This document shows positions 26,020 to 44,848 of a DNA stretch of 64,000 nucleotides, one piece after another. How positions within the stretch are numbered: position 1 is the stretch's first letter; every line of letters begins with the position of its first letter. The notes under the pieces are model-generated. The model ran no database searches and was not told where the DNA came from. It worked only from the letters and a program-made list of their open reading frames with translations. The DNA is from Muricoccus nepalensis (GTDB taxonomy: Bacteria > Pseudomonadota > Alphaproteobacteria > Acetobacterales > Acetobacteraceae). The position numbers and the translations under genes are program-made. Location of the stretch: contig NZ_RCZP01000026.1 of assembly GCF_006438825.1 (NCBI RefSeq), positions 1 through 64,000 on the forward strand, in the 5' to 3' direction.

Positions 26020-27816
26020 TCAGCGCAGCGCGGTGGCGGCCGGAAGACCGTCGCGCAGCTTCGCCTCCACGCGTGCCGCCTCGGCGGGGTCCAACGCAAG
26101 CCCGAGGGCGCGGCGCCACTGGAAGCGCGCCTCCGCCCAGCGCCCGGCGGCCCAGTAGGCGTCGCCGAGATGGTCGTTGATGACGCCGCTGCGCGATTCC
26201 AGTTCCGCGGCGCGCTCCAGCCAGCGGATCGCGCCCGCCGCGTCGCCGCTGCGGAACAGCGCCCAGCCGAGGCTGTCGGCGATGTTGCCGTCCTGTGGGC
26301 GGGCGGCCACCGCGCGCTCGAGCATCCCGCGCGCCTCCTCCAGCCGCTCCCCGCGCTCCACCCAGGCGTAGGCGAGGTGGTTCAGGACGGAGGGCTGCTC
26401 GGGCGAGAGGAGGAGCGCCTGGCGGAGGTCGGCCTCGGCGCCCGGCCAGTCCCCCGCCCCCTCGCGCGCGACGGCCCGGGCGTAGAAGAGGGGCCAGTCG
26501 GCCGCGCCGGGCTGGGCGAGGCGGTCGATCGCCGTGCCGTAGGCGGCGGCGGCCTCCGCGTGGCGCCCCTCGCCCCGCAGCACGTCGCCCATGGCGACCA
26601 CGGGCTGGGGGGCGCCGGGAAAGGCCTCGGCGGTGCGCCGGAGGAGCGCGAGGGAGTCGTCCGCCCGCCCGAGGCGGTTCAGCAGGGAGGCGCGGCGAAG
26701 GCTGGCCAGGGGGGCCATCGGGTCCTCCGCCGGCACGCTCGCCAGTACCGCCAGCGCGGCGTCGACGTGGCGCTCGTCCGCCAGGCTTTCGGCGGCGAGG
26801 ATCAGCGCGGGCGCAAAGCCGGGGCGCAGGCGCAGGGAGAGGCGGGCGAGGATGAGGGAGAGCTCCGGCGCGCCCTGCCGCCGCAGCGAGGCGCCGAGAG
26901 CCACCTGCGCCTCCGCCATTCCCTCCACCGGCGAGGCCACGGCCCGCCCGGCGAGCGCCGCGCGCCGCGCCGCCGGGCCGGCGGTCAGCGCGATGTCGTC
27001 CGAGCCCACGGACATGGCGTCGAACAGCCGCGCGCCGTCCGCCTCGCGCCCCGCGCGGGCGAGGATGCCGGCGGCGATGGTGGTCAGGCGAAGGTTCGGC
27101 TCCCCGGATTCCGCCACGGCGACGCGGATCAGCCGCTCCGCCTCGCGCGCGCGGCCGGCGAGGTCGGCGATCATCGCGCCGTGCAGCGCGGCCACGGCGC
27201 GGAGCGCCCCCGCTTCCACGAAGGGCCGGAGGGTGGCCAGCGCGGCGTCGGGGTTGCCGCGCCCGGCCTGCGCCCAGGCGAGCAGCAGCGGCTGGAGGAT
27301 CTGGGCGCTTCCCTGGCGCGGCAGGCCGCGGATGCGCGCCTCGGCCCGCTCCCACCGGCCGCCCTGGGCGTCGGAGCCGGCGAGCAGGAGGGCCGCGAGC
27401 TGGCTGTCGGGCAGGCGGCGGGCGAGGCGCACGGCGTCGGGCCGGCCGTCCATGACGGCGGCGCTGAAGGCGCGGGTGAGGATCTCCGGCTCGTCCGGGT
27501 CGGCGGCGAGGGCGGCGAGCAGCGCCTCGGCCGCGGCCGCGGCGTCGCTCTCGTTCGCGGCGAGGCGGCCGGCGAGGTAGGCGCCGTAGACGCCGGAGGG
27601 CGCGGGGACGGCGCGGCGGGGGGCCGCGACGGGGGCAGGCGGCGGGGGCTCCGCGAGCTCGGCCTCGGTGGCGGCCAAGCCGCGTTCCCCGGCGGCGCAG
27701 CCCGCCAGCAGGGCGGCCGCGAGCAGGAGGGCCTGCCCACGCCGCCGCGCGCCGCTGGCCCGGCGCGGCATCGGCGAGGAGGAGGGAAAGCGCGGGGTGG
27801 CCTCGGGCGGCATCAT
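26020..27816 (-). CDS. tetratricopeptide-repeat lipoprotein
   Basis: 598 aa from the ATG at 27816; the next ATG (27813) and one 15 codons later (27771) are alternatives. A basic N-terminus and hydrophobic core end in a lipobox (LLAGC, Cys near residue 40), so it is likely an outer-membrane lipoprotein facing the periplasm. An Ala/Pro linker follows, then about a dozen TPR-like helix pairs through the C-terminus (SVLNHLAYAWVERGERLEEA, NIADSLGWALFRSGDAAGAI, GVINDHLGDAYWAAGRWAEA). This gene order, TPR lipoprotein before ispE, is familiar in Rhodospirillales. Role probably scaffolding; no partner is evident. Confidence 0.85.
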   Translation of the reverse strand: MMPPEATPRFPSSSPMPRRASGARRRGQALLLAAALLAGCAAGERGLAATEAELAEPPPPAPVAAPRRAVPAPSGVYGAYLAGRLAANESDAAAAAEALLAALAADPDEPEILTRAFSAAVMDGRPDAVRLARRLPDSQLAALLLAGSDAQGGRWERAEARIRGLPRQGSAQILQPLLLAWAQAGRGNPDAALATLRPFVEAGALRAVAALHGAMIADLAGRAREAERLIRVAVAESGEPNLRLTTIAAGILARAGREADGARLFDAMSVGSDDIALTAGPAARRAALAGRAVASPVEGMAEAQVALGASLRRQGAPELSLILARLSLRLRPGFAPALILAAESLADERHVDAALAVLASVPAEDPMAPLASLRRASLLNRLGRADDSLALLRRTAEAFPGAPQPVVAMGDVLRGEGRHAEAAAAYGTAIDRLAQPGAADWPLFYARAVAREGAGDWPGAEADLRQALLLSPEQPSVLNHLAYAWVERGERLEEARGMLERAVAARPQDGNIADSLGWALFRSGDAAGAIRWLERAAELESRSGVINDHLGDAYWAAGRWAEARFQWRRALGLALDPAEAARVEAKLRDGLPAATALR

Positions 27817-28005
27817 GCGATGCAGCGTAGGATCACCGGCCCGTGAGACGCCAGCGCCGGCTTGGGGACGCCCGCCGAGGCGCAAGCAGTGTGGCAATCT
27901 TGTGCCAGGTCGCCGCCGGTTGCGGAAAGTTTCCTCACGAAGACGCGACTTCTTCTCTACCAGAAGCTGTGTTTCGATGCGTAACGATCTCTTGAGGAGG
28001 TAACG

Positions 28006-28644
28006 ATGCGTGCCCTGATCGTGGCGCTCGCCCTGCTGGCGGGCCTGGCCGCCGCGCCGGCGGAGGCGCAGAACCGGTTCTGGCTGGTCAACAACACCGG
28101 CGACACCATCCAGACTGCGCAGGTCTCGGCGTCGCGGCTGTCGAACTGGGGGCCGGACATCCTCGGCAGCGGGGTGCTGCCCGCGGGCAACCGGGTCTAC
28201 GTGACGCCGAATTTTGGCGACTGCATGCTGGACGTGCGCGTCACCTACGCCAGCGGGCGGGAGGAGACCCGGATGGGCCTGAACGCCTGCTCGATCAACA
28301 CCATCGCCTTCGGGGGGGCGGGCGCGGGTGCCGGGGCGAGCGTCAGCATGGGCGCGGGAGCGGGCGCGTCGGTGGCGGCGCCGCGCGGCGGCGACCCGTC
28401 CTTCAACTTCGTCAACCGCTCGGGCCAGGTCATCCGCGAGCTCTACATCTCCCTCTCGTCGCAATCGAGCTGGGGCTCGGACCGGCTTGGGACCAGCGTC
28501 ATGGAGCCGGGCCAGTCCCTCTACGTGCGCCTGCCGGGCGGCAGCAGCTGCGCCGCCGATATCCGCGTCGTCTACAACAACGGGGCGACCGCGGAGCGGC
28601 GCGGGGTGGAAACCTGCAGCCGGACAGACGTGGTCTGGCGCTGA
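28006..28644 (+). CDS. secreted protein with internally duplicated domain, unknown function
   Basis: 212 aa with an ideal GAGGAGG ribosome binding site. The signal peptide is residues 1-22 (ALALLAGLAAAPAEA|Q). Two homologous domains of about 80 residues follow, at about 23-105 and 127-212. Each has an FxxVNxxG start, a WGxDxLGxxV central motif, an RVYV/SLYVRL strand, a Cys and a C-terminal Cys (one pair per domain, probably a disulfide). They are joined by a Gly/Ala linker. Tryptophans and cysteines are conserved between copies. I recognise no named family. It stands alone and is followed by a double hairpin. Confidence 0.8.
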   Translation: MRALIVALALLAGLAAAPAEAQNRFWLVNNTGDTIQTAQVSASRLSNWGPDILGSGVLPAGNRVYVTPNFGDCMLDVRVTYASGREETRMGLNACSINTIAFGGAGAGAGASVSMGAGAGASVAAPRGGDPSFNFVNRSGQVIRELYISLSSQSSWGSDRLGTSVMEPGQSLYVRLPGGSSCAADIRVVYNNGATAERRGVETCSRTDVVWR

Positions 28645-28689
28645 TAGCTGGCGCAGGGCTTGCAGCGGGGCTTGCAAGCGGTCCGCCCA

Positions 28690-28885: not shown

Positions 28886-29662
28886 GTGAAGCTTCGCAAA
28901 GCCGTGATTCTCGCCGGTGGCTACGGAACCCGGCTGATGGAGGAAACCGAGGCCCGTCCCAAGCCCATGGTGGAAATTGGCGGGCGGCCCATCCTCTGGC
29001 ATATTATGAAGATATATGCCGCCAATGGAATTACCGAGTTTGTGCTGCCCCTCGGTTATAAGGGGCACATGATCAAGGCGTTTTTCGCCGATTACCACCT
29101 TCAGGCGGCGGACGTGACGATCGACCTCGCCCGCAACACCGTCACGCTACACCGCCACACGGCCGAGCCGTGGAAGGTCACGCTGGTGGACACGGGCCTC
29201 GAGACGATGACCGGCGGCCGGCTGGCCCGCCTGCGCGAGCATCTCGACGACGAGCCCTTCTGCATGACCTACGGCGACGGCGTGACCGCGCTGGACCTGC
29301 AGAAGATCGCCGACTTCCACGAGGCGCACGGGCGCATCGCCACGGTGACGGCGGTCCGGCCGCCGTCGCGCTTCGGTTCCCTCGCGATCGAGAACGGGCG
29401 GGTGACGAGCTTCGACGAGAAGCCGCTCGGTGGCGAGATCTGGATCAACGGCGGCTTCTTCGTGCTGTCGCCGAAGATCTTCGACTACATCGCCGGCGAC
29501 TCGACGGTGTTCGAGCGCGAGCCGCTCGAGGCGCTCGCGCGGGAGGGGGAGTTGATGGCCCATCCCTTCGAGGGCTTCTGGTACTCGATGGACACGCTTC
29601 GCGACCGCAAGCACCTCGAGGAGCTGTGGGCGGCCGGCAAGGCGCCCTGGAAGATCTGGTAG
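28886..29662 (+). CDS. rfbF: glucose-1-phosphate cytidylyltransferase
   Basis: 258 aa from a GTG at 28886. Nucleotidyltransferase signature AVILAGGYGTRL with catalytic Lys in ARPKPM near residue 26, GGRPILWHIMKIYA near 35, TYGDGVT (metal-binding Asp) near 130 and the C-terminal FWYSMDTLRDRKHLEELW. It makes CDP-glucose from glucose-1-phosphate and CTP, the entry to CDP-3,6-dideoxyhexoses and CDP-branched sugars. The expected CDP-glucose 4,6-dehydratase is not in the island. About the first 75 codons use visibly more A/T-ending codons (for example ATA, TAT, GGT) than the rest, a compositional break inside the gene. Confidence 0.92.
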   Translation: MKLRKAVILAGGYGTRLMEETEARPKPMVEIGGRPILWHIMKIYAANGITEFVLPLGYKGHMIKAFFADYHLQAADVTIDLARNTVTLHRHTAEPWKVTLVDTGLETMTGGRLARLREHLDDEPFCMTYGDGVTALDLQKIADFHEAHGRIATVTAVRPPSRFGSLAIENGRVTSFDEKPLGGEIWINGGFFVLSPKIFDYIAGDSTVFEREPLEALAREGELMAHPFEGFWYSMDTLRDRKHLEELWAAGKAPWKIW

Positions 29663-29921
29663 GGGCCTTCGCCGGCCCGTTGGCGCTTGTCTTCCCGGGG
29701 GTGCGGCTTGGCGCTCCCCGGGCGCCGGGAGAGGCGCGGCCCGTCCTGGGGCCACGCCACGGCAGCCCGGCCCGTCTGAACCCCATTCGCAACGAAAGGT
29801 GATCGGCGCGGCGGCGTCATCACGTTGTGCTGAATTTCAGAAAGCAACGTTTTTCGGCATTAAACGTCGATGGTGGACATTCCGCGCCGCATGCTAGGTC
29901 CGGCGAGGTTCCGGATTGGAG

Positions 29922-30887
29922 ATGAGGGTGGACATCTTGGCCGACGAAAAAGCTGCCCATTCTCCCGCTTTGACGGCCCTGGTTTTTCAGTCGCACCTGA
30001 TTACCCCGGGCATTTTGCGGCAATTCCGGAAACTGCAGCAGGCCTGCCCTGCGCATTACCGGGTGTTTTTCCTCATGCATGTTCCGCCGGGAACGCCGAA
30101 GCCCGAGGCGCTGAAGGAACTGCCGCATCATTTCGTCACCACGCCCGAGATCCGCACGCCCGAATACCCCGGCAAATCGGCGGGTGGGTCGGACTGGTCG
30201 ATCTGGGGCGGCGGGCACACGGACCTGCCGGGCATGCACTTCTACCGGCATCACCCCGGCTTCGAGCGCTACTGGTTCATGGAGTACGACGTTCGCTGGA
30301 GCGGCCGGTGGGAGCGCTTCTTCGCCAGCTTCGAGAACAGCCAGGCAGACCTCCTCGCAACAACCATGCGGACGGCGGAGACGCAGCCCAACTGGTGGAT
30401 GTGGGCGCTGTTCGGCGCGCCCGAGGGGCCGAGCGCCGTTCTGCCCAACTTCCGCTGGGAGGACCGCGTGGGCTGCCTGATGCCCCTGTTCCGGGCCAGC
30501 GCGCGCGCGATGAAGGTCATGGACAGCGCCTATCGCGAGGGATGGACGGGGCATTGCGAGGTCACCTGGCCGACGCTCCTTCGGAACGCCGGGCTGCGGC
30601 TGGAGGACATCGGGGGGCTGGGCGAGTTCGTCGCGCCGGAGAACCGCGGTCGCTTCTACAGGAACTCGCTCGTCAGCGGGACGCATTGCCCCGGAACCTT
30701 CGTCTTCCGTCCGGCCAAGCTGCCCCTGCCGCGGCTGCGCCGGAACATGCTCTGGCATCCGATTAAGCCGCTCGACGTCACGCTGGGGATCACCGGGCGC
30801 GAGCACTACTGGGAATTTCACCGTCGCCTGCGGAGCTTCCTGCAGTCCCGGAAGGCGGCCTGGGGAACCTCGCGACGCGATGCCTGA
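29922..30887 (+). CDS. glycosyltransferase-like protein (DUF3405-like)
   Basis: About 321 aa. TTG (29916), ATG (29922) and GTG (29928) are all possible starts and the ribosome binding site does not decide. The protein begins with VFQSHLITPGILRQF and VFFLMHVPPG, a GT-A-like alternation of strands and helices. The central WFMEYDVRWSGRWERFF (near residue 115) resembles the metal/nucleotide-binding core of DUF3405 proteins, considered glycosyltransferase-like. A C-terminal basic stretch (RLRRNMLWHPIKP) follows. Soluble, no signal peptide. Its position between a nucleotide-sugar enzyme and export-type genes suggests a role in polymer assembly. The donor is unknown. Confidence 0.6.
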   Translation: MRVDILADEKAAHSPALTALVFQSHLITPGILRQFRKLQQACPAHYRVFFLMHVPPGTPKPEALKELPHHFVTTPEIRTPEYPGKSAGGSDWSIWGGGHTDLPGMHFYRHHPGFERYWFMEYDVRWSGRWERFFASFENSQADLLATTMRTAETQPNWWMWALFGAPEGPSAVLPNFRWEDRVGCLMPLFRASARAMKVMDSAYREGWTGHCEVTWPTLLRNAGLRLEDIGGLGEFVAPENRGRFYRNSLVSGTHCPGTFVFRPAKLPLPRLRRNMLWHPIKPLDVTLGITGREHYWEFHRRLRSFLQSRKAAWGTSRRDA

Positions 30888-30940: not shown

Positions 30941-32044
30941 ATGGTGCTGTCCTTGGATGATGCGGATCGCATGCTTCGCGAAGGACCTGATTCGGTAATG
31001 GCGGCTGGACTTCCGGGCGATGGCTCCGAACGGCCGGCGGACGACTTGCCGGCGCGTGCGCGCGGGCCCTGGGCCCGGTACATCGCGACCGTGGCGGCGA
31101 CGTTCAGCGCCCTCTTCGTCGGCTACATGGCGACGATCGTGGCGCTGGACAAAGCGGGTCTCCTGCCCCCGCCCGCCCTCGTCAACGAGATCTGCGCCGA
31201 CGAGAAGCTCACTTGGCTGCGCAACAACCCGCCCGAGGCGCCGAACCTCCTCATCGTCGGCTCCTCGCTCGCCTGGCGGGGCATCGACAGCCAGCAGTTC
31301 GTCCAGCGGGTTCCGGCGGCCCGCCCGCTGAACGGCGGCGTCTGCCACGCGGGCATCGACCAGTCGACCTGGGTGGCGCGCTACCTTATCCGCCACTTCC
31401 CGTCGGTGCAGAGCGCGCTTCTCGTGGTGGCGCCGCAGGACTTCACGAGCTGCGCCCAGAAGCCGGATCAGCTCTTCGATCCCGGGACGGTCGACGCCTA
31501 CGTCTTCGACCGGCGCTGGCTCTACCCCTTCTACATTACCCAGTTCGACCCCGTGTCGCTCGCCCGCAACGCCGGGCACATCGCCGATCTCCGGGCGGCG
31601 CACGGCGAAGTCGAATCCCTCATCATGACGCGCTTCGGGGACGGGCCGCTGAACGCCCCGGGTAACCGCGGGCTTCTCTACGGTCCCGTGAAGCGGCTGG
31701 ACGCCTCCTGCTTCACGGCGCTGCGGAGCTTCGCCCTCTCGCTCGCGGAGGGCGGGCGGCATCTCTTCGTGACCACCGCGCCGCTGCATCCCGGCTGGCG
31801 GGAGCGCTACGATCCCTCGGGCGAGCTGCACCAGGCCTTCGTGGCGGGGGTGCGTGCGGCGCTCGCCGAGGTGGGGACGACCTCCTTCTGGGACGGGGCG
31901 ACGGTGTTCGGGGGCGAGGCGTCGGAGTTCACCGACGCCATCCACGTCAACTGGCCGGCGGCTCAGCGCTTCACCGCGGAGCTGGTGCGGGCCTTCCGGG
32001 ACTACCGCGCCTCCTCCGGCGCACGCCCCCTGAGCCAGCTCTAG
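30941..32044 (+). CDS. membrane-anchored SGNH/AlgJ-DltD-like protein, partner of MBOAT
   Basis: 367 aa. One membrane segment (residues about 46-66, YIATVAATFSALFVGYMATIVAL) places the rest outside. The domain has an SGNH-like serine in LLIVGSSLAWRGID (Gly107-Ser108-Ser109) and a catalytic-type Asp/His pair in TDAIHVN (Asp332, His335). This gives the Ser-Asp-His set of SGNH hydrolases and of AlgJ/AlgX and DltD. It is 16 nt upstream of an MBOAT gene, the classical pairing in which MBOAT passes an acyl group across the membrane and the SGNH protein places it on a polymer. The start is the first of several possible; an internal ATG at 30998 is an alternative. Confidence 0.72.
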   Translation: MVLSLDDADRMLREGPDSVMAAGLPGDGSERPADDLPARARGPWARYIATVAATFSALFVGYMATIVALDKAGLLPPPALVNEICADEKLTWLRNNPPEAPNLLIVGSSLAWRGIDSQQFVQRVPAARPLNGGVCHAGIDQSTWVARYLIRHFPSVQSALLVVAPQDFTSCAQKPDQLFDPGTVDAYVFDRRWLYPFYITQFDPVSLARNAGHIADLRAAHGEVESLIMTRFGDGPLNAPGNRGLLYGPVKRLDASCFTALRSFALSLAEGGRHLFVTTAPLHPGWRERYDPSGELHQAFVAGVRAALAEVGTTSFWDGATVFGGEASEFTDAIHVNWPAAQRFTAELVRAFRDYRASSGARPLSQL

Positions 32045-32060
32045 GAGGGATCTGAGGGGC

Positions 32061-33662
32061 ATGCTGTTCAACTCGGCCGCCTTCATCCTCGGCTTCCTGC
32101 CCGTCGCCTGGGTGGTCTTCTTCGCCCTTGGCACGCGGGGCTACTTCCGCGCCGCCGTCGTCTGGCTCACGGCGGCCTCGCTGTTCTTCTACGGGTGGTG
32201 GAACCCGCTCTACGTCCCGCTGCTCATGAGCTCCATGGCGGCGAACTACGCGCTTGGCCGGCGCCTCTCGCGCCACCAGAGCCGGCCGCTGCTCCTGGCG
32301 GGCATCGCGGGCAACCTCCTGCTGCTGGGCTACTACAAATACGCGGGCTTCCTCGTGCAGACAGCGAACGACGTGTCGGGCGCGGCCTTCCCCATCCCCG
32401 AGATCGCGCTGCCGCTCGCGATGTCCTTCTTCACGTTCCAGCAGATCGCCTTCCTGATCGACGCCTATGACGGCGTGGCGGAGGAGACGAACTTCGCCAA
32501 CTACGGCATGTTCATCACCTTCTTCCCGCACCTGATCGCGGGGCCCATCACCCATCACAAGGAGATGCTGCCGCAGTTCGACGACAGCCGCATCTTCCGC
32601 CCGCAGCCGTCGATGATCGCGCTCGGCCTCACGCTCTTCATCATCGGGTTGTGCAAGAAGGTCCTCCTGGCGGACACCGCCTCGCACTGGGTGTCGCCCG
32701 TCTTCGAGGGGGCCGCCGGGGGCGTGCCGCCCGTGCTGACCGACGCCTGGCTCGGCGCGCTCTCCTACGCCCTGCAGATTTACTTCGACTTCTCCGGCTA
32801 CACCGACATGGCGATCGGCGTGGGGATGCTGTTCGGCATCCGCCTGCCGCGCAACTTCAACTCGCCCTACAAGGCGCGAAACATCATCGAGTTCTGGTCG
32901 CGCTGGCACATGACGCTGACGCGCTTCCTGACGGCTTACCTCTACAACCCCCTGGCGCTGCACCTGACGCGCGCGCGGCTGCAGAAGGGCAAGCCCGGGC
33001 TCAAGCGGGGCAAGACCTCGCCGGCCGCCTTCCTGCAGCTCGTGGCCGTGCCCACCGTGCTCACGATGTTCCTGGCGGGGCTCTGGCACGGGGCGGGCTG
33101 GCAGTTCATCGCCTTCGGCGTGCTCCACGGCCTGTACCTCACGGTCAACCACGCCTGGCGCACCTTCAAGGCCTCGCGCGGCTGGACGATGGACAGCCCG
33201 CGCGCCTTCCCGCGCGCCGTGGCCGTGCTCACCACCTTCCTCTGCGTGATCGTCGCGCTCGTCTTCTTCCGGGCGGCGAGCGTGCCGGCGGCGGTCAGCA
33301 TCCTCTCGGGCATGCTCGGGCAGAACGGCGCGGTTCTGCCTGATATCCTCGCGAAGCTGCCGGGCGTCTGGCGCACCGCCACGGCGCTCGGCTTCGAGTT
33401 CGCGCCGGGGCCGCCGCTGAGCCAAGCCCTGCTCCTCGTTGCATTCCTGCTGATCGTCTGGACGCTGCCGAACTCCCAGGAATGGCTCGGCCGCTTCGAG
33501 ACGGCCTTCGGAAGCTCGGTGAAGGACGCGGCGCGGCGGCGCGGGCTGCTCTCCTGGCAGCCGACGATGGCGTTTGGCGTCATCGTCGGCGTGGCGGGGT
33601 TCTTCGCCATCCTGCGGGCCCTCTCCGCCGCGCCGACCGAATTTCTTTACTTCCAGTTCTGA
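32061..33662 (+). CDS. MBOAT family membrane O-acyltransferase (AlgI/DltB type)
   Basis: 533 aa, about 11-12 membrane helices, with GAGGGATCTGAGGGG upstream. Family motifs: the N-terminal LFNSAAFILGFLPVAW; SFFTFQQIAFLIDAY near residue 125; FFPHLIAGPITHHKEMLPQF near 155; YFDFSGYTDMAIGVGMLFGI near 240; FWSRWHMTLTRFL with His283; and the invariant active-site His343 in GLWHGAGWQF. MBOATs of this branch transfer acyl groups from a cytoplasmic carrier to extracellular polysaccharide or teichoic acid. An SGNH partner lies upstream and an ACP downstream, so the acyl donor here is probably that ACP. Confidence 0.92.
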   Translation: MLFNSAAFILGFLPVAWVVFFALGTRGYFRAAVVWLTAASLFFYGWWNPLYVPLLMSSMAANYALGRRLSRHQSRPLLLAGIAGNLLLLGYYKYAGFLVQTANDVSGAAFPIPEIALPLAMSFFTFQQIAFLIDAYDGVAEETNFANYGMFITFFPHLIAGPITHHKEMLPQFDDSRIFRPQPSMIALGLTLFIIGLCKKVLLADTASHWVSPVFEGAAGGVPPVLTDAWLGALSYALQIYFDFSGYTDMAIGVGMLFGIRLPRNFNSPYKARNIIEFWSRWHMTLTRFLTAYLYNPLALHLTRARLQKGKPGLKRGKTSPAAFLQLVAVPTVLTMFLAGLWHGAGWQFIAFGVLHGLYLTVNHAWRTFKASRGWTMDSPRAFPRAVAVLTTFLCVIVALVFFRAASVPAAVSILSGMLGQNGAVLPDILAKLPGVWRTATALGFEFAPGPPLSQALLLVAFLLIVWTLPNSQEWLGRFETAFGSSVKDAARRRGLLSWQPTMAFGVIVGVAGFFAILRALSAAPTEFLYFQF

Positions 33663-33675
33663 GGGGACGACGGCC

Positions 33676-35631
33676 TTGGATCAGCAGAGCGTCCAGCCTC
33701 CCCAGGCCCCGGAGGAGGCCGATCTCGCCTGGCTGCCGGCGCATCCCGACCTGTCGGCGGCCCTCGCGGCCGCGCGCCGCCTGCCGCAGCCGGCGGAGCG
33801 GGTGCGGGCGGCGGCCGAGCTCGCCGGCTACCGCCACAACTTCCTCGCCGCGGGGCGGATCGACCGGCTGGCCTCCCTCGACGCCGTGCCGCCGGCGGAG
33901 CTGCGCGGCCTCGGCCTCTTCCCCCTTCGGCTCGCGATTCTCGCCTCTCACACCGTGGACCACCTCTTCCCGGCGCTGCGGGTGGCGGGGCTCGGGCGGC
34001 GGCTGGCGCTCGACCTGCGCGTCGCGCCCTACGGGCAGTACCGCCAGGTGCTGCTCGGGCCGCCCACGGAGCTCGACGAGTTCTCGCCCCAGCTCGTGCT
34101 GCTCGCCCTCGACGAGGCGGAGTTCCAGCTCGGCCTGCCGCTCGAGGCGGGCGAGGCGGAGGTCGAGGAGGCGGTGGCGCGCCGCGTCGAGGAGGTGCGG
34201 CACCTCTGGCGCCGGGCGCGGGAGCGCTACGGCGCGACGGTCGTGCAGCAGACGATCGTCAACACCGCGCCGCCGCTGTTCGGCAACTTCGAGGGCCTCG
34301 TCGCCGCCGCGCCCGGGGCGCTGGTGGAGCGGCTGAACGCCGGTCTGCGGCGCGCGGCCCGGGAGGAGGGCGTGCTGCTGCTCGACCTCGCCTGGCAGGT
34401 GGCGCGGGACGGGGCGGCGCGGTGGCTGGACCCCGTCCGCTGGCACCAGGCGAAGCAGCTCGTCAGCCTGCGGAGCGCGCCGCTCTACGGGGACCTCCTG
34501 GCGCGGGTAGCGGCGGCCGTCGCCGGCCTCTCCCGCAAGTGCCTCGTGCTGGACCTCGACAACACGCTCTGGGGCGGGGTGATCGGGGATGACGGGCTGG
34601 GCGGGATCGTGCTCGGCCAGGGCAGCGCGGCCGGGGAGGCCTATGCGGGCTTCCAGCGCTACTGCGGCCTGCTGGGCGCGCGCGGCGTCATCCTCGCGGT
34701 CTGCTCGAAGAACGACGAGGCGAACGCCGTCGAGGCCTTCGACAAGCACCCGGAGATGGTTCTCCGCCGCGACCAGATCGCAGCCTTCGTCGCCAACTGG
34801 ACGGACAAGGCCGCGAACCTGCGGGACATCGCGGCGACGCTGAACATCGGCATCGACAGCCTCGTCTTCGTCGACGACAACCCGGCGGAGCGGGCGATCG
34901 TGCGGCGGGAGCTGCCCATGGTGGCGGTGCCGGAGCTGCCCGAGGACGTCGCGGGCTACGCCGCCCGCTTGGCGGAGGCCGGCTACTTCGAGGCGGCGGC
35001 CTTCACGGCCGACGACGCGCAGCGCGGCCGGCAATACGCCCTGAACGCCGAGCGGCAGAGGGCCAGCCAGACCTCCTCGACGGACATGGAAGGGTTCCTG
35101 CGCAGTCTCGAGATGGTGATGGACGCGGCCCCGATCGCGCCCGTCGACCTCGCGCGGGTCACGCAGCTCACCAACAAGACGAACCAGTTCAACCTGACGA
35201 CGCGCCGCTACACGGAAGCCGAGATCGCGCAGGTGATGGAGGACCCCTCCTCCGTCACCCTCCGCGTGCGGCTGGCCGATCGCTTCGGCGACAACGGGCT
35301 GATCGCGGTGGTGCTCGCGCGCCCCGCGGGGGAGGGCGCGCTCGCGATCGACACCTGGCTGATGAGCTGCCGCGTCCTCGGGCGGGGCGTCGAGCGGGCG
35401 ATGCTGCAGAGCCTCGTCCGCGCGGCGTCCGCCCGGGGGGCGAGGGCGCTGATCGGCGTCTACCGGCCGACCGCGAAGAACGGCATGGTGAGCGACCACT
35501 ACGCGAAGCTGGGCTTCGAGCCGATGCCCCCGCCGCCGGGCGCAGAGGACGGCGCCACCTTCTGGCGGCTGGAGCTCGACCGCTTCGTGGCGCCGGAGCA
35601 CTTCATCTCCATCATGGAAGGGGTTGCATGA
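33676..35631 (+). CDS. HAD-IIIC phosphatase-like / FkbH-type acyl-ACP forming enzyme
   Basis: 651 aa from a TTG at 33676, 13 nt after the MBOAT stop, with GAGGGG upstream. Three parts: an N-terminal SGNH-like region (about 1-280, with QQTIVNTAPP); a HAD-IIIC domain with nucleophile motif VLDLDNTLWGGVIGDDG near 290, VCSKND near 343 and VFVDDNPAER near 397; and a C-terminal GNAT-like region (about 470-640, NKTNQFNLTTRRY, WLMSCRVLGRGVERAML). FkbH proteins take 1,3-bisphosphoglycerate, dephosphorylate it and load glyceryl onto an ACP. The next gene is an ACP overlapping by 4 nt. No polyketide synthase is present, so the product must have another use. Confidence 0.88.
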   Translation: MDQQSVQPPQAPEEADLAWLPAHPDLSAALAAARRLPQPAERVRAAAELAGYRHNFLAAGRIDRLASLDAVPPAELRGLGLFPLRLAILASHTVDHLFPALRVAGLGRRLALDLRVAPYGQYRQVLLGPPTELDEFSPQLVLLALDEAEFQLGLPLEAGEAEVEEAVARRVEEVRHLWRRARERYGATVVQQTIVNTAPPLFGNFEGLVAAAPGALVERLNAGLRRAAREEGVLLLDLAWQVARDGAARWLDPVRWHQAKQLVSLRSAPLYGDLLARVAAAVAGLSRKCLVLDLDNTLWGGVIGDDGLGGIVLGQGSAAGEAYAGFQRYCGLLGARGVILAVCSKNDEANAVEAFDKHPEMVLRRDQIAAFVANWTDKAANLRDIAATLNIGIDSLVFVDDNPAERAIVRRELPMVAVPELPEDVAGYAARLAEAGYFEAAAFTADDAQRGRQYALNAERQRASQTSSTDMEGFLRSLEMVMDAAPIAPVDLARVTQLTNKTNQFNLTTRRYTEAEIAQVMEDPSSVTLRVRLADRFGDNGLIAVVLARPAGEGALAIDTWLMSCRVLGRGVERAMLQSLVRAASARGARALIGVYRPTAKNGMVSDHYAKLGFEPMPPPPGAEDGATFWRLELDRFVAPEHFISIMEGVA

Positions 35632-35870
35632 CCCGGGACGCGATCATGGCCGCGCTGACGGAGGTTTTCCACGAGGTCTTCGACGACGACTCGATCACCC
35701 TGGCCGACACGACGACCGCGGAGGACATCGCGGAATGGGACAGCCAGACGCACATCAACCTCATCCTGGCGGCGGAGATGCGCTTCGGGGTGCGTTTCCG
35801 CACATCGGAGCTGGACGGGCTGAAGAACGTCGGCGACTTCGTGTCGGTGATCGAGCGGAAGCTCGCCTAG
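35628..35870 (+). CDS. acyl carrier protein
   Basis: 80 aa. Its ATG overlaps the TGA of the FkbH-type gene (ATGA). It is acidic and helical, with the phosphopantetheine attachment serine in EWDSQTHINLI (Ser39). This DSxxHI form is typical of stand-alone ACPs paired with FkbH enzymes rather than of fatty-acid AcpP (DSLD). The hydrophobic face of helix II/III (LILAAEMRFGVRF, LDGLKNVGDFV) is intact. I infer that it is loaded by the upstream enzyme and read by the MBOAT. Confidence 0.9.
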   Translation: MTRDAIMAALTEVFHEVFDDDSITLADTTTAEDIAEWDSQTHINLILAAEMRFGVRFRTSELDGLKNVGDFVSVIERKLA

Positions 35871-35893: not shown

Positions 35894-36028
35894 TGACGAA
35901 CCCGCGATTGTGAAAAGCGCGCGGGCCGAAGCGAGTTGCGGGCCTGCCGTGCGCGGATTAATGCCCTACTGCAACGTCGTGATCGGTGGCCGCGCGTCCA
36001 CCAGGCCGGAATCAAGGAGCGCTCATCG

Positions 36029-36616
36029 GTGAAGTTCCAGCGCGGAACGGTTGAGGGTGCCTGCGTGGTGGCGATGGACCGCCGCGGCGACGACCGCGGC
36101 TTCTTCGGCCGCCTTTTCTGCGAGCAGGAGTTCGGGGGCGCGGGCCTCGAGACCCGCTTCGTCCAGGTGAACAACTCGCTGACCGGCCGGCGCGGCACGC
36201 TGCGGGGGATGCACTACCAGCTGCCGCCCGCGGCCGAGGTGAAGGTGGTGCGCTGCATCCGCGGCTCGATCTACGACGTCGTCGCGGATCTGCGGCCGGA
36301 TTCGCCGACCTACGGCCGGTGGTTCGGGGCCGAGCTGAGCGCCGAGAACCGGGACATGATGTACGTGCCGCGCGGCTGCGCGCACGGCTTCATCACGCTG
36401 ACGGACGACGCCGAGGCGCTCTACCTCGTCAGCGCCTTCTACGCGCCCGAGAGGGAACGTGGCCTGCGCCACGACGATCCCTGGCTCGGCATTGAGTGGC
36501 CGATCGAGCCGGTGGAGCTCTCGGAGAAGGACCGGTCCTGGCCCGACTTCGATCCCGAGTACCATGGGGTCGGGCTGATGACCGGCCTGGTGCCCGCGAA
36601 GGAGAAGACGGCGTGA
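36029..36616 (+). CDS. rfbC: dTDP-4-dehydrorhamnose 3,5-epimerase family protein
   Basis: 195 aa from a GTG at 36029 with AAGGAG upstream. RmlC cupin fold with catalytic His62 in LRGMHYQ, Lys72 in EVKVVRC, the VPRGCAHGF motif near 114 and Tyr132 in ALYLVSAFYAPE, all aligned to the family's active-site set. The ending (PDFDPEYHGVG) differs from standard RmlC. No dTDP-sugar genes (rmlA, B or D) are nearby; instead a CDP-glucose synthetase is. The substrate is therefore probably a CDP-4-keto-6-deoxyhexose. Its stop overlaps the GTG of the next gene. Confidence 0.88.
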   Translation: MKFQRGTVEGACVVAMDRRGDDRGFFGRLFCEQEFGGAGLETRFVQVNNSLTGRRGTLRGMHYQLPPAAEVKVVRCIRGSIYDVVADLRPDSPTYGRWFGAELSAENRDMMYVPRGCAHGFITLTDDAEALYLVSAFYAPERERGLRHDDPWLGIEWPIEPVELSEKDRSWPDFDPEYHGVGLMTGLVPAKEKTA

Positions 36617-37965
36617 TCATCGTCGATACGGCGCTCGCGAAGCGCGCGGCCGAGGGAAGGCCCGTCACCGTCGGCATGGTCGGCGCTGGCTTCATGGCGC
36701 GCGGCATCGCCAACCAGATCGTCAACTCGGTGCCCGGCATGCGGCTGGTCGCCATCGCCAACCGGACGATCGGCAACGCGCGCCGCGCCTTCGCCGAGGC
36801 GGGCTGCGAGGAGGTGGAGGAGGCGGCGACGCTCTCCACCCTCGAGGACTGCATCCGCCGCGGCGTGCCCGCCGTGACCGAGGACGCCTTCCTGCTCTGC
36901 GACGCCGCGGGGATCGACTGCCTCATCGACGCGACGGGGGCGGTGGAGCACGGGGCGCAGGTGACGCTGCGCGCGATCGAGCGCGGACGGGACGTCGTCT
37001 CGATGAACGCGGAGCTGGACGGGACCGTCGGCCCCATCCTGCGCCGGCGCGCGGAGGCAGCCGGGGTGCTGCTGACGGGCTGCGACGGCGACCAGCCGGG
37101 CGTGCAGATGAATCTCTGGCGCTTCGTGCGCTCCATCGGGCTGACGCCGGTGATGTGCGGCAACATCAAGGGGCTGCAGGACCCCTACCGGACGCCGGCG
37201 ACCCAGGCCGCCTTCGCCGCGAAGTGGGGCCAGAACCCCGCGATGGTGACGAGCTTCGCCGACGGCACGAAGATCAGCTTCGAGCAGGCCATCGTCGCGA
37301 ACGCGACGGGGATGACGGTGTCGAAGCGCGGCATGACGGGGCTGGACCACGCGGGGCACGTGGACGACCTCACGCGCGTCTACGACGCCGAGGAGCTGAA
37401 GCGGCTGGGCGGCGTCGTGGACTACGTCGTCGGCGCCAAGCCGGGCCCCGGCGTCTACGTGCTGGCCACACATGACGACCCCAAGCAGCGCCACTACCTG
37501 AACCTGTACAAGCTGGGGGAGGGGCCGCTCTACAGCTTCTACACGCCCTATCACCTCTGCCATTTCGAGGTTCCGCTCTCGGTCGCGCGCGCCGTGCTGT
37601 TCCGCGACGCCGTGCTGCAGCCCATCGCGGGCCCGCGCGTGGACGTGGTGGCGACGGCCAAGACGGACCTGCCCGCGGGGCAGGTCATCGACGGGCTGGG
37701 CGGGTTCCACACCTACGGGCAGTGCGAGGCCTACGAGGTCTCCGCGGCGGAGAGGCTGCTGCCGATGGGCCTGGCCGAGGGGTGCCGCCTGCGCCGCGCC
37801 GTGCGGAAGGACCACGTGCTGACCTACGACGACGTCGAGATCCCGGCAGGGCGCGTGGTCGACCGCCTCCGCGCGGAGCAGGATGAGGCCTTCCCCGCCG
37901 CCAGCGCCCCCGTGGCGCGCGAGCTGGCGCCGGCCGGCGCGGAACTTGCCGGCCCCGCCGGCTGA
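36613..37965 (+). CDS. NAD(P)-dependent homoserine-dehydrogenase-like oxidoreductase with SAF domain
   Basis: 450 aa from a GTG at 36613 that overlaps the rfbC stop (GTGA). The Rossmann fold begins VTVGMVGAGFMARGIANQI (glycine motif near residue 20). A mid-domain TGCDGDQPGVQMNLWRFV and GNIKGLQDPYRTP are characteristic of this uncharacterised group. The C-terminal part (about 335-440) resembles a SAF domain (ARAVLFRDAVLQPI through KDHVLTYDDVEIPAGRVV), as in sialic-acid synthase and altronate dehydratase. Such proteins recur in CDP-sugar/O-antigen loci with rfbF and rfbC, where a branched or deoxy-sugar modification is suspected. The reaction is not established. Confidence 0.75.
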   Translation: MIIVDTALAKRAAEGRPVTVGMVGAGFMARGIANQIVNSVPGMRLVAIANRTIGNARRAFAEAGCEEVEEAATLSTLEDCIRRGVPAVTEDAFLLCDAAGIDCLIDATGAVEHGAQVTLRAIERGRDVVSMNAELDGTVGPILRRRAEAAGVLLTGCDGDQPGVQMNLWRFVRSIGLTPVMCGNIKGLQDPYRTPATQAAFAAKWGQNPAMVTSFADGTKISFEQAIVANATGMTVSKRGMTGLDHAGHVDDLTRVYDAEELKRLGGVVDYVVGAKPGPGVYVLATHDDPKQRHYLNLYKLGEGPLYSFYTPYHLCHFEVPLSVARAVLFRDAVLQPIAGPRVDVVATAKTDLPAGQVIDGLGGFHTYGQCEAYEVSAAERLLPMGLAEGCRLRRAVRKDHVLTYDDVEIPAGRVVDRLRAEQDEAFPAASAPVARELAPAGAELAGPAG

Positions 37966-37975
37966 CAGAGGAGCG

Positions 37976-39055
37976 ATGACGCGCATGCGTATCCTGATCA
38001 CCGGGAACATGGGTTATGTCGGACCCGTCCTGGTGCGCCACCTGAGGCAGCGCTTCCCCGATGCCACGCTCCTCGGCTTCGACAGCGGCCTCTTCGCGCA
38101 TTGCCTCACCATGCCCGCCGGGACGGGGCCAGTGCCCGAGACGCTGCTGGACGCGCAGCACTTCGGCGACGTCCGGAACGTGCCGGACGCGGTCTTCGAG
38201 GGCGTGGACGCCGTCGTGCACCTCGCGGCGGTCTCGAACGACCCGATGGGGAACCGCTTCGAGGCCGTGACCGAGGCCATCAACCAGGAGGCGAGCCTGC
38301 GCGTGGCGGAGCAGGCGCATCGCGCGGGCGTGCGCGCCTTCGTCTTCGCCTCGAGCTGCAGCGTCTACGGATTCGCGGAGGGAGGGGCGCGGCGCGAGAC
38401 CGACGCCGTGAACCCGCTCACGGCCTATGCCCGCTCCAAGATCGGCACGGAGGAGGGGCTGCGCCAGCGCGACCTCCCGGGCATGGCCGTGACCTGCCTT
38501 CGCTTCGCCACCGCCTGCGGCATGTCGGACCGCCTGCGCCTCGACCTCGTGCTGAACGACTTCGTCGCCGGCGCGCTGGGCAGCGGGACGGTGTCGGTGC
38601 TCAGCGACGGCACGCCCTGGCGGCCGCTGATCGACGTGCGCGACATGGCGCGCGCGATCGAGTGGGCGATCCAGCGCCGGCCCGAGGACGAGGGCGGCCC
38701 CTTCCTCGTCGTGAACGCGGGCTCGGACGAGCGCAACCACACGGTGCGCGAGCTGGCGGAGGCCGTTGCCGGCGCGATCCCGGGGACCGAGGTGAGCATC
38801 AACAAGGACGCGCCGCCGGACAAGCGCTCCTACCAGGTCGACTTCTCGCTCTTCCGCAAGCTGGCGCCAGAGCACCAGCCGCAGGAAACGCTGGACCGCT
38901 CCATCGCCGGGCTGCTGGCGGGGCTGCGCGGCATGGGCTTCGCCGACCCGAACTTTCGGGAGTCGCCGTTCATCCGGCTGAAGACCCTCGCCGCGCTGCT
39001 CGAGAGCGGGCGCCTCGGCACGGACCTGACCTGGGTGCCCGATCGCGCGGCGTGA
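37976..39055 (+). CDS. NAD-dependent epimerase/dehydratase (extended SDR)
   Basis: 359 aa from an ATG with a strong AGAGGAG site. N-terminal NAD fold ILITGNMGYVGPVLV (GxxGxxG near residue 10), HLAAVSNDPMG near 85, and the SDR catalytic set SSCSVYG (Ser) plus TAYARSKIGTEEGL (Tyr and Lys near 152-156). The C-terminus binds the sugar nucleotide (RPLIDVRDMARAIEWA). It could be the missing 4,6-dehydratase or a later epimerase/reductase of a CDP-sugar, but the typical dehydratase active-site Asp-Glu pair is not obvious. Its TGA overlaps the GTG of the kinase gene. Confidence 0.88.
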   Translation: MTRMRILITGNMGYVGPVLVRHLRQRFPDATLLGFDSGLFAHCLTMPAGTGPVPETLLDAQHFGDVRNVPDAVFEGVDAVVHLAAVSNDPMGNRFEAVTEAINQEASLRVAEQAHRAGVRAFVFASSCSVYGFAEGGARRETDAVNPLTAYARSKIGTEEGLRQRDLPGMAVTCLRFATACGMSDRLRLDLVLNDFVAGALGSGTVSVLSDGTPWRPLIDVRDMARAIEWAIQRRPEDEGGPFLVVNAGSDERNHTVRELAEAVAGAIPGTEVSINKDAPPDKRSYQVDFSLFRKLAPEHQPQETLDRSIAGLLAGLRGMGFADPNFRESPFIRLKTLAALLESGRLGTDLTWVPDRAA

Positions 39056-42499: not shown

Positions 42500-42689
42500 G
42501 TTGACGGGAAGCCAGTGTCGATGACAGGTTCCGGCCGGGCGCCCCGGCCGAGGCCGCGGCGGCCCGCGAGGGGGAACCCAGCCGGTCGTGGACGGGAGGC
42601 GGGGGCGCAGGGGTGCCCGGCGCCTCCGGCCGGGCCCGCGGGGCGCCGGCCCTCCTCGACGACGCCGCGCCTCCCTGACGAAGGACATG

Positions 42690-43619
42690 ATGGTGACCTC
42701 GCCGACCCCCAACTTCCTCTCCGCCCTGCCGGGCATCTCCGGCATCCTCGTCACGCCCTTCGACGGCGAGGACCGGATCGCGCCGCAGCTCCTGCGCCCG
42801 GTCATCGACCGCGCGGTGTCGGCGGGCGTGCACATCCTCACCGCCAACGGCAACACCGGCGAGTTCTACGGCCTGACGACGGCCGAGGCGGAGCGCATGG
42901 TGCACGCGGTGGCCGAGATGGTCAGCGGGCGCGTGCCGGTGATCGGCGGCGTCGGGCGCAGCATCGGCGACGCGGTGGCGCTCGCCCGCGCCTCGAAGGC
43001 CGCCGGCGCCTCCGCGCTGATGGTGCACCAGCCGCCCGACCCCTTCGTCGCGCCGCGCGGCGTGGTCTCCTACGTGAAGCGCGTGGCCGAGGCGGGGCAG
43101 GGGCTGCCCATCGTGCTCTACCTCCGCAACGACGGCATCGGGCTCGACGCGATCGAGCAGCTCTGCGCCATCCCCGGCGTCGTCGGCGTGAAGTGGGCCT
43201 CGCCCGCGCCGCTACGCCTGGCCGAGGCGATCCGCCGGGCCGACCCGAAGACCGTCTGGGTCGGCGGGCTGGCGGAGGTCTGGGCGCCGCCGCTGACCGC
43301 GGTCGGCGCGCGCGGCTTCACCTCGGGCCTCATCAACGTCTGGCCGGAGCAGTCCGTCGCGATCCACGCCGCGCTGGCCGCCGGGGACTACCCGAAGGCG
43401 AACGCGCTGATCGCCACGATGAGCGCCTTCGAGGAGCTGCGCGCCGAGGAGGGGAACGGCACCAACGTCTCCGTCGTGAAGGCCGCGCTGAAGCTCATGG
43501 GCAACGACTGCGGCCATGTCCGCCCGCCCGGCGCCTGGCCGCTGACCGACCGCCAGGCGACCCGCCTGGCCGAGAGCCTGGCCAAATGGGGGCTTGCCGC
43601 GGCCCGCAAGGCGGCCTGA
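42690..43619 (+). CDS. dihydrodipicolinate synthase family protein, probable 2-keto-3-deoxy-sugar-acid dehydratase
   Basis: 309 aa. ATG 42687, ATG 42690 and GTG 42693 are all usable; 42690 gives AAGGA a 4-nt spacing. DHDPS/NAL TIM-barrel marks: GILVTPFDGEDRI, TANGNTGEFYGLT near residue 50, Tyr144 in IVLYLRNDG and the Schiff-base Lys168 in VVGVKWAS. Neighbouring IlvD dehydratase and ketoglutarate-semialdehyde dehydrogenase point to a 2-keto-3-deoxypentonate (or 5-keto-4-deoxyglucarate) dehydratase making alpha-ketoglutarate semialdehyde, rather than lysine-pathway DapA. First gene of the catabolic operon. Confidence 0.88.
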   Translation: MVTSPTPNFLSALPGISGILVTPFDGEDRIAPQLLRPVIDRAVSAGVHILTANGNTGEFYGLTTAEAERMVHAVAEMVSGRVPVIGGVGRSIGDAVALARASKAAGASALMVHQPPDPFVAPRGVVSYVKRVAEAGQGLPIVLYLRNDGIGLDAIEQLCAIPGVVGVKWASPAPLRLAEAIRRADPKTVWVGGLAEVWAPPLTAVGARGFTSGLINVWPEQSVAIHAALAAGDYPKANALIATMSAFEELRAEEGNGTNVSVVKAALKLMGNDCGHVRPPGAWPLTDRQATRLAESLAKWGLAAARKAA

Positions 43620-43633
43620 TACCGGGCGAGGGG

Positions 43634-43666
43634 CGCGCGGCCCGGGACGGAGAGCCCGGCCGCGCG
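43634..43666 (+). terminator. intercistronic hairpin after the DHDPS-family gene
   Basis: A 12-bp stem with one bulged C (43643): left arm 43634-43646, right arm 43655-43666, 8-nt loop. No U-tract, and the operon appears to continue. More likely an mRNA-stabilising or attenuating element than a full stop. Confidence 0.4.
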
Positions 43667-43707
43667 TCCGGACACAGCGATCAACAAAGCGAAGGGGAAC
43701 GACGGGA

Positions 43708-44799
43708 ATGAGCACGACGAGGCGCAGCATCCTGCGGATGGCCGGCGGCATGGCGGGCGCGGCCGCGCTGGCCCGCGGCGCCGGGGCGCAGTCCTTTCCC
43801 TTCGCGCCGAACCAGCGCTACCCCGACCCGGCGGTCCAGATCCTGGATCCGTCCTTCGCGAAGTACCGGCTCTACAGCAGCACGGTCGAGCAGCTCGCGA
43901 CCGGCATGCGCTGGGCGGAGGGGCCCGCCTACTTCCCGGACGGCGGCTACCTCCTCGTCAGCGACATCCCCAACAACCGCATCATGAAGTACGACGAGAA
44001 GGACGGCAGCTTCACCGTCTTCCGCCAGCCCGCGAACTACGCGAACGGCAACGCCCGCGACCGCCAGGGCCGGCTGGTGACCTGCGAGCACTCCGTCACC
44101 CGCCGCGTGACGCGCACCGAGAAGGACGGCTCCATCACCGTCCTCGCGGACCGCTTCGAGGGCAAGCGCCTCAACGCGCCCAACGACATCGTGGTGAAGT
44201 CCGACGACAGCATCTGGTTCACCGATCCCACCTTCGGCATCCTCGGCGAGTGGGAGGGCAGCCGCGCGACGCCGGAGCAGGCCACCACCAACGTCTACCG
44301 CCTGACGCCCGACGGGAAGCTCGACGCCGTCATCACCGACCTCGTCCTGCCCAACGGCCTCGCCTTCTCGCCCGACGAGAAGAAGCTCTACGTCGTCGGC
44401 CGCAACCCCGCGCCCGCCCGTTCCATCTTCTCCTACGACGTCGGCGCGGATGGCAGCCTCTCCAACCGCGTCAAGCTCATCGACGCCACCGATTCCGCGG
44501 CCCTCGACGGCTTCCGCGTCGATCGCGACGGCAATCTCTGGTGCGGCTACGGCAGCGACGGCAACCTCGAGGCCGAGCCCACGCGCGTCGGCGGCCGGAT
44601 GGTCTACGCTCCGCGCGGCAAGCCCGAGGAGCTCGACGGCGTGATGGTCTTCAACCCGCAGGGCAAGCCGATCGCCCATATCCGCCTGCCCGAGCGCTGC
44701 GCCAACCTCTGCTTCGGCGGCCCCAAGGGCAACCGCCTCTACATGACGAGCTCGCACTCCCTCTACGCGCTCTATGTCGAGGCCCACGGCGCGGTCTGA
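43708..44799 (+). CDS. Tat-exported SMP-30/gluconolactonase family lactonase
   Basis: 363 aa from the ATG at 43708, which puts a twin-arginine signal at the very N-terminus (STTRRSILRMAGG, then a hydrophobic core ending GAGAQ). The mature part is a six-bladed propeller: GMRWAEGPAYFPDGGYLLVSD (metal-binding Glu), LNAPNDIVVKSDDSIWFTDP, LPNGLAFSPDEKKLYV and an FRVDRDGNLWCGYG blade with a catalytic-type Asp. It opens sugar lactones in the periplasm, giving the aldonate imported or used by the rest of the locus. A second, cytoplasmic paralogue sits at 53535-54491. Confidence 0.9.
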   Translation: MSTTRRSILRMAGGMAGAAALARGAGAQSFPFAPNQRYPDPAVQILDPSFAKYRLYSSTVEQLATGMRWAEGPAYFPDGGYLLVSDIPNNRIMKYDEKDGSFTVFRQPANYANGNARDRQGRLVTCEHSVTRRVTRTEKDGSITVLADRFEGKRLNAPNDIVVKSDDSIWFTDPTFGILGEWEGSRATPEQATTNVYRLTPDGKLDAVITDLVLPNGLAFSPDEKKLYVVGRNPAPARSIFSYDVGADGSLSNRVKLIDATDSAALDGFRVDRDGNLWCGYGSDGNLEAEPTRVGGRMVYAPRGKPEELDGVMVFNPQGKPIAHIRLPERCANLCFGGPKGNRLYMTSSHSLYALYVEAHGAV

Positions 44800-44848
44800 G
44801 CCGCGCCCCACGCGTTCGCGGCGACGCCGCACAGGAAGGAAACCGCCC

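What the first reader, a model, noticed from the sequence alone, without database searches (positions are those of the whole stretch)
30941..35870. Dlt-like acyl-transfer module with an FkbH enzyme in place of the adenylating enzyme
Four adjacent genes encode an SGNH/AlgJ-DltD-like anchored protein (Ser108-Asp332-His335), an MBOAT with His343, an FkbH-type HAD-IIIC enzyme and a stand-alone ACP. Gaps are 16 nt and 13 nt, then a 4-nt overlap. In the Dlt system DltA loads D-Ala on DltC, DltB (MBOAT) takes it across the membrane and DltD (SGNH-like) places it on the polymer. Here the loader is FkbH, which in polyketide pathways makes glyceryl-S-ACP from 1,3-bisphosphoglycerate. No polyketide or peptide synthetase is present, so glyceryl (or a derivative) may be the group transferred to the exported glycan made by the neighbouring genes. 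MBOAT-SGNH pairs are known; this donor system is my inference.
Basis: partly seen in the sequence, partly recalled or inferred. Interest (0 to 1): 0.85.

Follow-up and report, generated by a model that had tools for sequence, protein, structure and literature searches.

The report
Carrier-protein-fed surface sugar acylation cassette
Four neighbouring genes look like a machine that loads a small acid, probably glycerate, onto a carrier protein and passes it across the membrane onto a surface sugar polymer; the same gene set recurs in many bacteria, so the idea can be tested in laboratory strains.

Summary
The four genes are as described, except that the SGNH nucleophile is more likely Ser109 than Ser108. 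Two missed features strengthen the case. (1) The MBOAT ends in FLYFQF, the FxYxxF acyl-shuttle peptide of DltX and PatA. (2) Its catalytic His283-His343 spacing is 59 residues, against 39-40 in nearly all ordinary MBOATs measured and 46 in DltB; the extra residues lengthen helix HC, where DltC docks on DltB. Of 166 FkbH loci examined, 77 (75 distinct) have an MBOAT within 6 kb, 76 of them with an ACP and 76 on one strand; none of the 77 shows an adenylation-domain motif or a clear ketosynthase. They are mostly Proteobacteria, with single loci in three other phyla. On an MBOAT tree one split (SH-aLRT 99) separates 77 long-spacing from 36 short-spacing proteins. Of six long-spacing MBOATs outside FkbH cassettes, four have an ACP next door; none of 36 short ones has one within 1.5 kb. 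Best reading: a Dlt-like, carrier-fed MBOAT-SGNH pathway with FkbH as loader and glyceryl as likeliest acyl group. Donor chemistry and acceptor polymer are inferred, not shown. New variant of a known kind.

The parts
30941..32044 (+). SGNH-fold protein with N-terminal membrane helix; likely catalytic Ser109, Asp332, His335; proposed final acyl transferase to the glycan
32061..33662 (+). MBOAT of the long-spacing clade; catalytic His343; proposed membrane acyl transfer
   Evidence: PF03062; DltB best solved relative; clade
33642..33659 (+). C-terminal FLYFQF acyl-shuttle hexapeptide, Tyr530
   Evidence: F528, Y530, F533 invariant in 54 MBOATs; FxYxxF shuttle described in PMC12148441
32958..33044 (+). 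MBOAT residues 300-328: lengthened helix HC and loop (300-303 and 313-328 absent from ordinary MBOATs), proposed ACP docking element
   Evidence: DltC docking on DltB HC in PMC11035591
33676..35631 (+). FkbH-type HAD-IIIC protein (TTG start), proposed loader of the ACP
   Evidence: TIGR01686 over cut-off; active-site residues shared with FkbHs of polyketide loci
35628..35870 (+). Stand-alone acyl carrier protein, phosphopantetheine site Ser39 (WDSQTH)
   Evidence: Ser39 invariant in 6; nearest solved chain 2lml, E 6.8e-24

Best explanation
A carrier-protein-fed MBOAT-SGNH pathway that acylates an envelope or exported glycan. Step 1 (inferred from the family): FkbH takes D-1,3-bisphosphoglycerate, removes phosphate and loads a D-glyceryl group on the phosphopantetheine of the ACP (Ser39). 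Step 2 (inferred from DltB-DltC and the clade-specific helix): glyceryl-ACP docks on the lengthened HC helix of the MBOAT, and His343 helps pass the group through the membrane funnel to Tyr530 in the C-terminal FLYFQF peptide. Step 3 (inferred from PatAB and Dlt): the acyl-Tyr peptide hands the group to the SGNH serine (Ser109), which moves it to a sugar hydroxyl outside the inner membrane. Shown here: the parts, their conserved linkage, the hexapeptide, the helix difference and the SGNH fold. Inferred: acyl identity, direction of transfer and acceptor.
For: MBOAT within 6 kb of FkbH in 77 of 166 loci, with ACP in 76, same strand in 76 of 77 and in several gene orders. FxYxxF ends in 74 of 77. 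FkbH-linked MBOATs plus one other form one clade. Long spacing in 71 of 71 clade rows with both His against 34-40 in 34 ordinary rows and 46 in DltB, in the helix on which DltC docks. Four of six long MBOATs outside FkbH cassettes have an ACP next door, 0 of 36 short ones do. FkbH active-site residues match polyketide-locus FkbHs. No A-domain motif in 77.
Against: No biochemistry. The SGNH partner was recognised by profile in only 38 of 77 cassettes; elsewhere it rests on motifs or was not sought. FkbH-ACP occurs without MBOAT in 53 of 166 loci, so the pair has other uses. Two long-spacing MBOATs (L245, L272) have neither FkbH nor ACP within about 9 kb. L053, counted among the 77, lacks the hexapeptide. 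No acceptor is identified; many neighbours are unrelated to polysaccharide. The docking-helix argument rests on a single evolutionary split. The hexapeptide is equally present in ordinary MBOATs.
Confidence: 0.62

Rival explanations
1. Carrier-fed MBOAT-SGNH acylation as above, but the group is not plain glyceryl: a processed form, or another acyl group that this FkbH makes from a different acyl phosphate.
For: In known pathways glyceryl-ACP can be oxidised and methylated further (PMC7489565, passages). Two plasmid cassette-like loci have a methyltransferase close by (L210) or a VOC protein (L209).
Against: Active-site residues match FkbHs of polyketide loci, and the window has no obvious processing enzyme between the four genes.
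Confidence: 0.22
2. The MBOAT-SGNH pair is an ordinary acetyl-CoA-dependent O-acetylase, and FkbH-ACP does an unrelated job nearby, such as acylating a nucleotide sugar in the cytoplasm.
For: FkbH-ACP pairs occur without MBOAT in 53 of 166 loci, seven of them with a WcbI-type protein. Ordinary MBOATs carry the same hexapeptide.
Against: The MBOATs near FkbH form one clade with a DltB-like longer helix, and four of six of its members outside cassettes still sit beside an ACP.
Confidence: 0.08
3. The cassette acylates a small molecule, a lipid or a protein rather than a polysaccharide.
For: Some natural-product clusters combine FkbH domains and an MBOAT (PMC10143770, passages). Many cassettes are not inside large polysaccharide loci.
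Against: No ketosynthase better than 1e-4 and no A-domain motif in 77 cassettes; the shuttle peptide is tied to hand-over to SGNH partners acting on polymers.
Confidence: 0.08

Closest known systems
Dlt D-alanylation system (DltA, DltB, DltC, DltD, DltX)
   Same: Carrier protein, MBOAT and SGNH protein; DltB is the nearest solved MBOAT by sequence and fold; long HC helix; FxYxxF shuttle
   Different: FkbH in place of an adenylating enzyme; shuttle peptide fused to the MBOAT; MBOAT far below the DltB family cut-off
PatA-PatB / AlgI type MBOAT-SGNH O-acetylation
   Same: Fused C-terminal FxYxxF hexapeptide and SGNH partner
   Different: A carrier protein and loader are encoded alongside; longer His-His segment. 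PMC12148441 says non-Dlt MBOAT/SGNH pathways lack a carrier protein (passage)
FkbH glyceryl-ACP loaders of tetronate and methoxymalonyl pathways
   Same: TIGR01686 domain, stand-alone ACP, shared active-site residues
   Different: No ketosynthase or FabH-like partner; the ACP is paired with MBOAT and SGNH
2lml, a putative ACP (recalled, not from a call, as GmACP3 of Geobacter metallireducens)
   Same: Nearest solved ACP; a paper on GmACP3 proposes in its title a role in lipopolysaccharide synthesis (reference line seen)
   Different: That paper is not held, so its neighbourhood was not compared

Membership tests
Dlt system | Adenylating enzyme (DltA) loads the carrier | tested here: not met
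   No A-domain motif in any of 77 cassettes, window included (motif scan of the held stretches only); FkbH stands there instead
Dlt system | MBOAT over the DltB family cut-off | tested here: not met
   184.9 bits against 375 for TIGR04091
Dlt system | Stand-alone carrier protein next to the MBOAT | tested here: met
   ACP 35628-35870; ACP in 76 of 77 cassettes
Dlt system | Separate DltX microprotein with the shuttle peptide | not tested
   Not searched for; the peptide is fused to the MBOAT here
MBOAT-SGNH acyl-CoA pathways (PatAB type) | FxYxxF fused to the MBOAT C-terminus | tested here: met
   FLYFQF; positions invariant in 54
MBOAT-SGNH acyl-CoA pathways (PatAB type) | No carrier protein; acyl-CoA donor | tested here: inconclusive
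   A carrier protein is encoded alongside, unlike that type, but the donor itself was not assayed
FkbH family | FkbH domain over the curated cut-off | tested here: met
   314.5 bits against 146.65
FkbH family | Glyceryl transfer from 1,3-bisphosphoglycerate to ACP | not testable with these tools
   Needs an intact-mass assay; residues agree
SGNH hydrolase fold | SGNH alpha/beta fold with Ser and a C-terminal DxxH | tested here: met
AlgJ or DltD proper | Recognisable as an AlgJ or DltD relative | tested here: inconclusive
   No Pfam, NCBIfam or PDB-sequence match; neither name is among the 50 entries listed, which excludes nothing

The most novel reading that the evidence does not exclude
A broad clade of MBOATs has a DltB-like carrier-protein docking helix and works from acyl-ACP: a third class of envelope acylation beside Dlt (adenylated amino acid, separate DltX) and PatA/AlgI (acyl-CoA). 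Its main loader is FkbH, so bacteria decorate exported glycans with D-glyceryl drawn straight from glycolysis, and other loaders may feed the same MBOAT-SGNH module.
Probability: 0.55. Interest if true: 0.85.

Novelty: new variant of a known kind. Interest (0 to 1): 0.78.

Why it matters
[quoted passage not shown] This cassette looks like a counter-example that recurs across proteobacteria. If glyceryl is the group, it is a route from a glycolytic intermediate to surface-polymer decoration. Glyceric acid is a known acyl group on a bacterial gum: native gellan carries L-glycerate (PMC9104527, passage); FkbH should give the D form (established chemistry of 1,3-bisphosphoglycerate, not tested), so gellan need not use this route. 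A homologous cassette lies on pSymB of Sinorhizobium meliloti about 4 kb before capsule-type export genes, in a genetically tractable species, so the idea is directly testable.

Tried and rejected
Rejected: a polyketide cluster. Ketosynthase queries (own FabF and PKS) gave three hits in the 166 loci: L051 (2.7e-40, no MBOAT) and two marginal ones in MBOAT loci, L188 (3.4e-4) and L099 (4.1e-4). The A-domain motif was seen in 3 of 89 MBOAT-less loci and 0 of 77 MBOAT loci.

Rejected: the hexapeptide as a mark of carrier use; 36 of 37 unlinked MBOATs have an FxYxxF end too. Rejected: my regex measure of His-His spacing, which called five short MBOATs (L205, L227, L229, L232, L234) long; the alignment gives 39. 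L272's 59 was counted by eye, since the regex failed there.

Weak or empty: profile comparison of the window's SGNH family with the partner family of Gemmatimonadales-type cassettes (probability 0.4%) and with sphingomonad partners (E 7e-4, C-terminal 82 columns only); Pfam on ten candidate partners (best a DltD hit at E 0.32). Gellan papers looked at in passages gave no glyceryl transferase gene.

Literature: searches (open-licence PMC only). One paper holds FkbH, MBOAT and acyl carrier protein together, a review of aeruginosins, where they serve peptide synthesis. The last search listed four papers, all on other subjects by title.

The query for B and C was built from six MBOAT-linked FkbHs, which favours cassettes; set A used the neutral family model. 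Of 30 MBOAT-less loci in B, 14 end within 3 kb of FkbH, so some may be cut. L114, L053, L210 and L235 were dropped before spacing and the second tree. Trees were quick or FastTree searches with long-branch warnings.
Full report

TWO FEATURES NOT IN THE FINDING. First, the MBOAT ends in FLYFQF. FxYxxF is the acyl shuttle of DltX and, fused to the MBOAT, of PatA; PatA acetylates its own Tyr there and the group goes on to the SGNH protein PatB (PMC12148441, abstract and passages). F528, Y530 and F533 are invariant in 54 aligned MBOATs of cassettes. Second, the segment between the two conserved histidines is long: 59 residues in the window. In the cassette clade it is 59 (54 rows) or 52 (17 rows) of 71 rows with both His; in ordinary MBOATs 39 (29), 40 (4) or 34 (1) of 34; in DltB 46. 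Residues 300-303 and 313-328 are absent from the ordinary ones. They lie at and after the end of the helix that in DltB is HC, on which DltC docks through Met302, Val305, Ile306, Met309 and Lys312, with Arg317 of TMH8 (PMC11035591, passages); placing them there is by sequence alignment. The MBOAT model (52 rows, pLDDT 92.5) is closest to DltB among solved structures (E 1.6e-13, TM 0.72 by target length).

CO-OCCURRENCE. FkbH loci were gathered without looking at MBOATs: 60 regions from 200 genomes of the window's order, found with the family model; the 80 nearest relatives in a collection of 84,980 species; 20 regions from 397 genomes of one sphingomonad family; 5 plasmid records. The queries for the second and third sets came from MBOAT-linked FkbHs, so those sets lean towards cassettes; the first does not. 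An MBOAT lies within 6 kb in 6 of 60, 50 of 80, 17 of 20 and 3 of 5, plus the window: 77 of 166. An ACP is near in 76 of the 77 and MBOAT and FkbH share a strand in 76. Gene orders: 32 MBOAT-FkbH-ACP-SGNH, 21 FkbH-ACP-MBOAT, 12 ACP-FkbH-MBOAT, 5 FkbH-ACP-MBOAT-SGNH, 4 MBOAT-ACP-FkbH and 3 singles, one of them the window. FxYxxF ends 74 of the 77; of the rest L122 is split between frames, L153 is cut by a contig end and L053 lacks it. In the order at large 25 of 80 genomes have any MBOAT, so by my rough estimate about 0.1 of 60 FkbH loci would have one by chance, against 6 (5 with the hexapeptide). Of the 50 in the second set, 47 are Pseudomonadota and one each Acidobacteriota, Gemmatimonadota and Binatota. 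Two loci are duplicates, so 75 are distinct.

A DEDICATED MBOAT CLADE. On a tree of 111 MBOATs, the 74 FkbH-linked ones and one other form one clade (SH-aLRT 100); linkage needs 2 changes against a shuffled mean of 31.2, none of 500 as low. On the FkbH tree, MBOAT linkage needs 8 changes among ACP-bearing rows, 11 among all: the FkbH-ACP pair serves several systems, while the MBOAT clade goes with the pair. Then a test that could have failed: of six further MBOAT regions fetched, five proved long-spacing (56 or 59) and one short (39). None has FkbH within the stretch held. Four of the five long ones (L268, L269, L270, L271) have an ACP next door; L269 reads glycosyltransferase, ACP, MBOAT and a protein with GDS and DxxH motifs. 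L272 has none, nor has L245, seen in L264, whose genome holds two MBOAT-less FkbH-ACP pairs elsewhere. So 4 of 6. None of 36 short-spacing loci has an ACP in its flanks of about 1.5 kb (with five loci re-sorted). One split with SH-aLRT 99 separates 77 long from 36 short MBOATs.

DONOR. [quoted passage not shown] D293, D295, T297, S344, K378, D400, D401, C565 and R566 are shared with three FkbHs of polyketide loci, one of them beside an ACP and a 3-oxoacyl-ACP synthase III. No adenylation motif was seen in the 77 cassettes and no ketosynthase better than 1e-4, with two marginal hits; in the own genome the PF00109 hits lie on other contigs. The donor is therefore probably D-glyceryl, by family inference. 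The nearest solved relative of FkbH covers only its N-terminal and HAD parts (3slr).

ACCEPTOR. In the window the module sits between a glucose-1-phosphate cytidylyltransferase and RmlC-, DRL- and SDR-type genes, a set partly repeated beside L093, L119, L125 and L157. No polymerase or flippase was recognised among 30 window proteins scanned. Among 128 neighbour proteins from 23 of 30 chosen cassettes (the list was cut at a size limit), the commonest families are glycosyltransferase 2 (6), epimerase (4), DRL (4) and a methyltransferase (4), out of 184 families. In S. meliloti pSymB the cassette is followed about 4 kb on by capsule-type genes, and the gene annotated there as TonB-dependent receptor has the GGST and DxxH motifs expected of the SGNH partner. 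The acceptor is an extracytoplasmic glycan by analogy only.

AGAINST. FkbH-ACP without MBOAT makes up 53 of 166 loci; eight MBOAT-less loci, seven of them with an ACP, hold a WcbI-type protein. The window-type SGNH profile found the partner in 38 of 77 cassettes; for others only motifs in some loci support one. The helix argument rests on one split. Nothing biochemical was tested.

COMPARISON. It works like Dlt (carrier, MBOAT, shuttle Tyr, SGNH) but is not filed as a Dlt system: no adenylating enzyme was seen and the MBOAT is below the DltB cut-off. It has the PatA-type fused hexapeptide but, unlike PatAB, a carrier protein. Best called a carrier-fed MBOAT-SGNH cassette. Ten searches of the open-licence library listed no paper that describes it; closed papers were not searchable.

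Noticed in passing
L268 8376-10060, L269 5087-9494, L270 8241-10027, L271 8487-10406: Long-spacing MBOATs beside an ACP but without FkbH within the stretch held; the loader is unknown or lies elsewhere (both genomes have FkbH-ACP pairs on other contigs).
   Followed up: partly
L208 7911-12391; also L051, L060, L061, L073, L132, L144, L151: FkbH loci with a WcbI-type polysaccharide protein instead of an MBOAT: perhaps a second use of the FkbH-ACP donor.
   Followed up: no
L207 8699-13734 (Sinorhizobium meliloti pSymB): The gene annotated TonB-dependent receptor looks like the anchored SGNH partner (GGST, DPGH); MBOAT, ACP and HAD genes flank it.
   Followed up: partly
window 28886-29662 and 35936-39055: Glucose-1-phosphate cytidylyltransferase, RmlC-like, DRL/SAF oxidoreductase and SDR genes, partly repeated beside other cassettes; they may make an unusual CDP-sugar.
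   Followed up: no
window 29916-30887: Protein without any Pfam or NCBIfam match; a relative lies near the cassette of Acetobacter garciniae (L119).
   Followed up: no
L033 7908-10085 (own genome, contig C61): Second FkbH of the genome, without an adjacent ACP and with changed residues (A at 304 and 306, M at 570): a different FkbH subfamily.
   Followed up: partly
window 4687-9060: 1457-residue protein with RTX calcium-binding repeats and cadherin-like domains.
   Followed up: no
window 42588-50045: Sugar-acid catabolic gene group: DHDPS-type aldolase, gluconolactonase, TctC receptor, aldehyde dehydrogenase and L-arabinonate dehydratase.
   Followed up: no
window 26020-28677 (-): TPR protein with a match to the exopolysaccharide-linked PrsT family far below its cut-off (93 bits against 312).
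   Followed up: no
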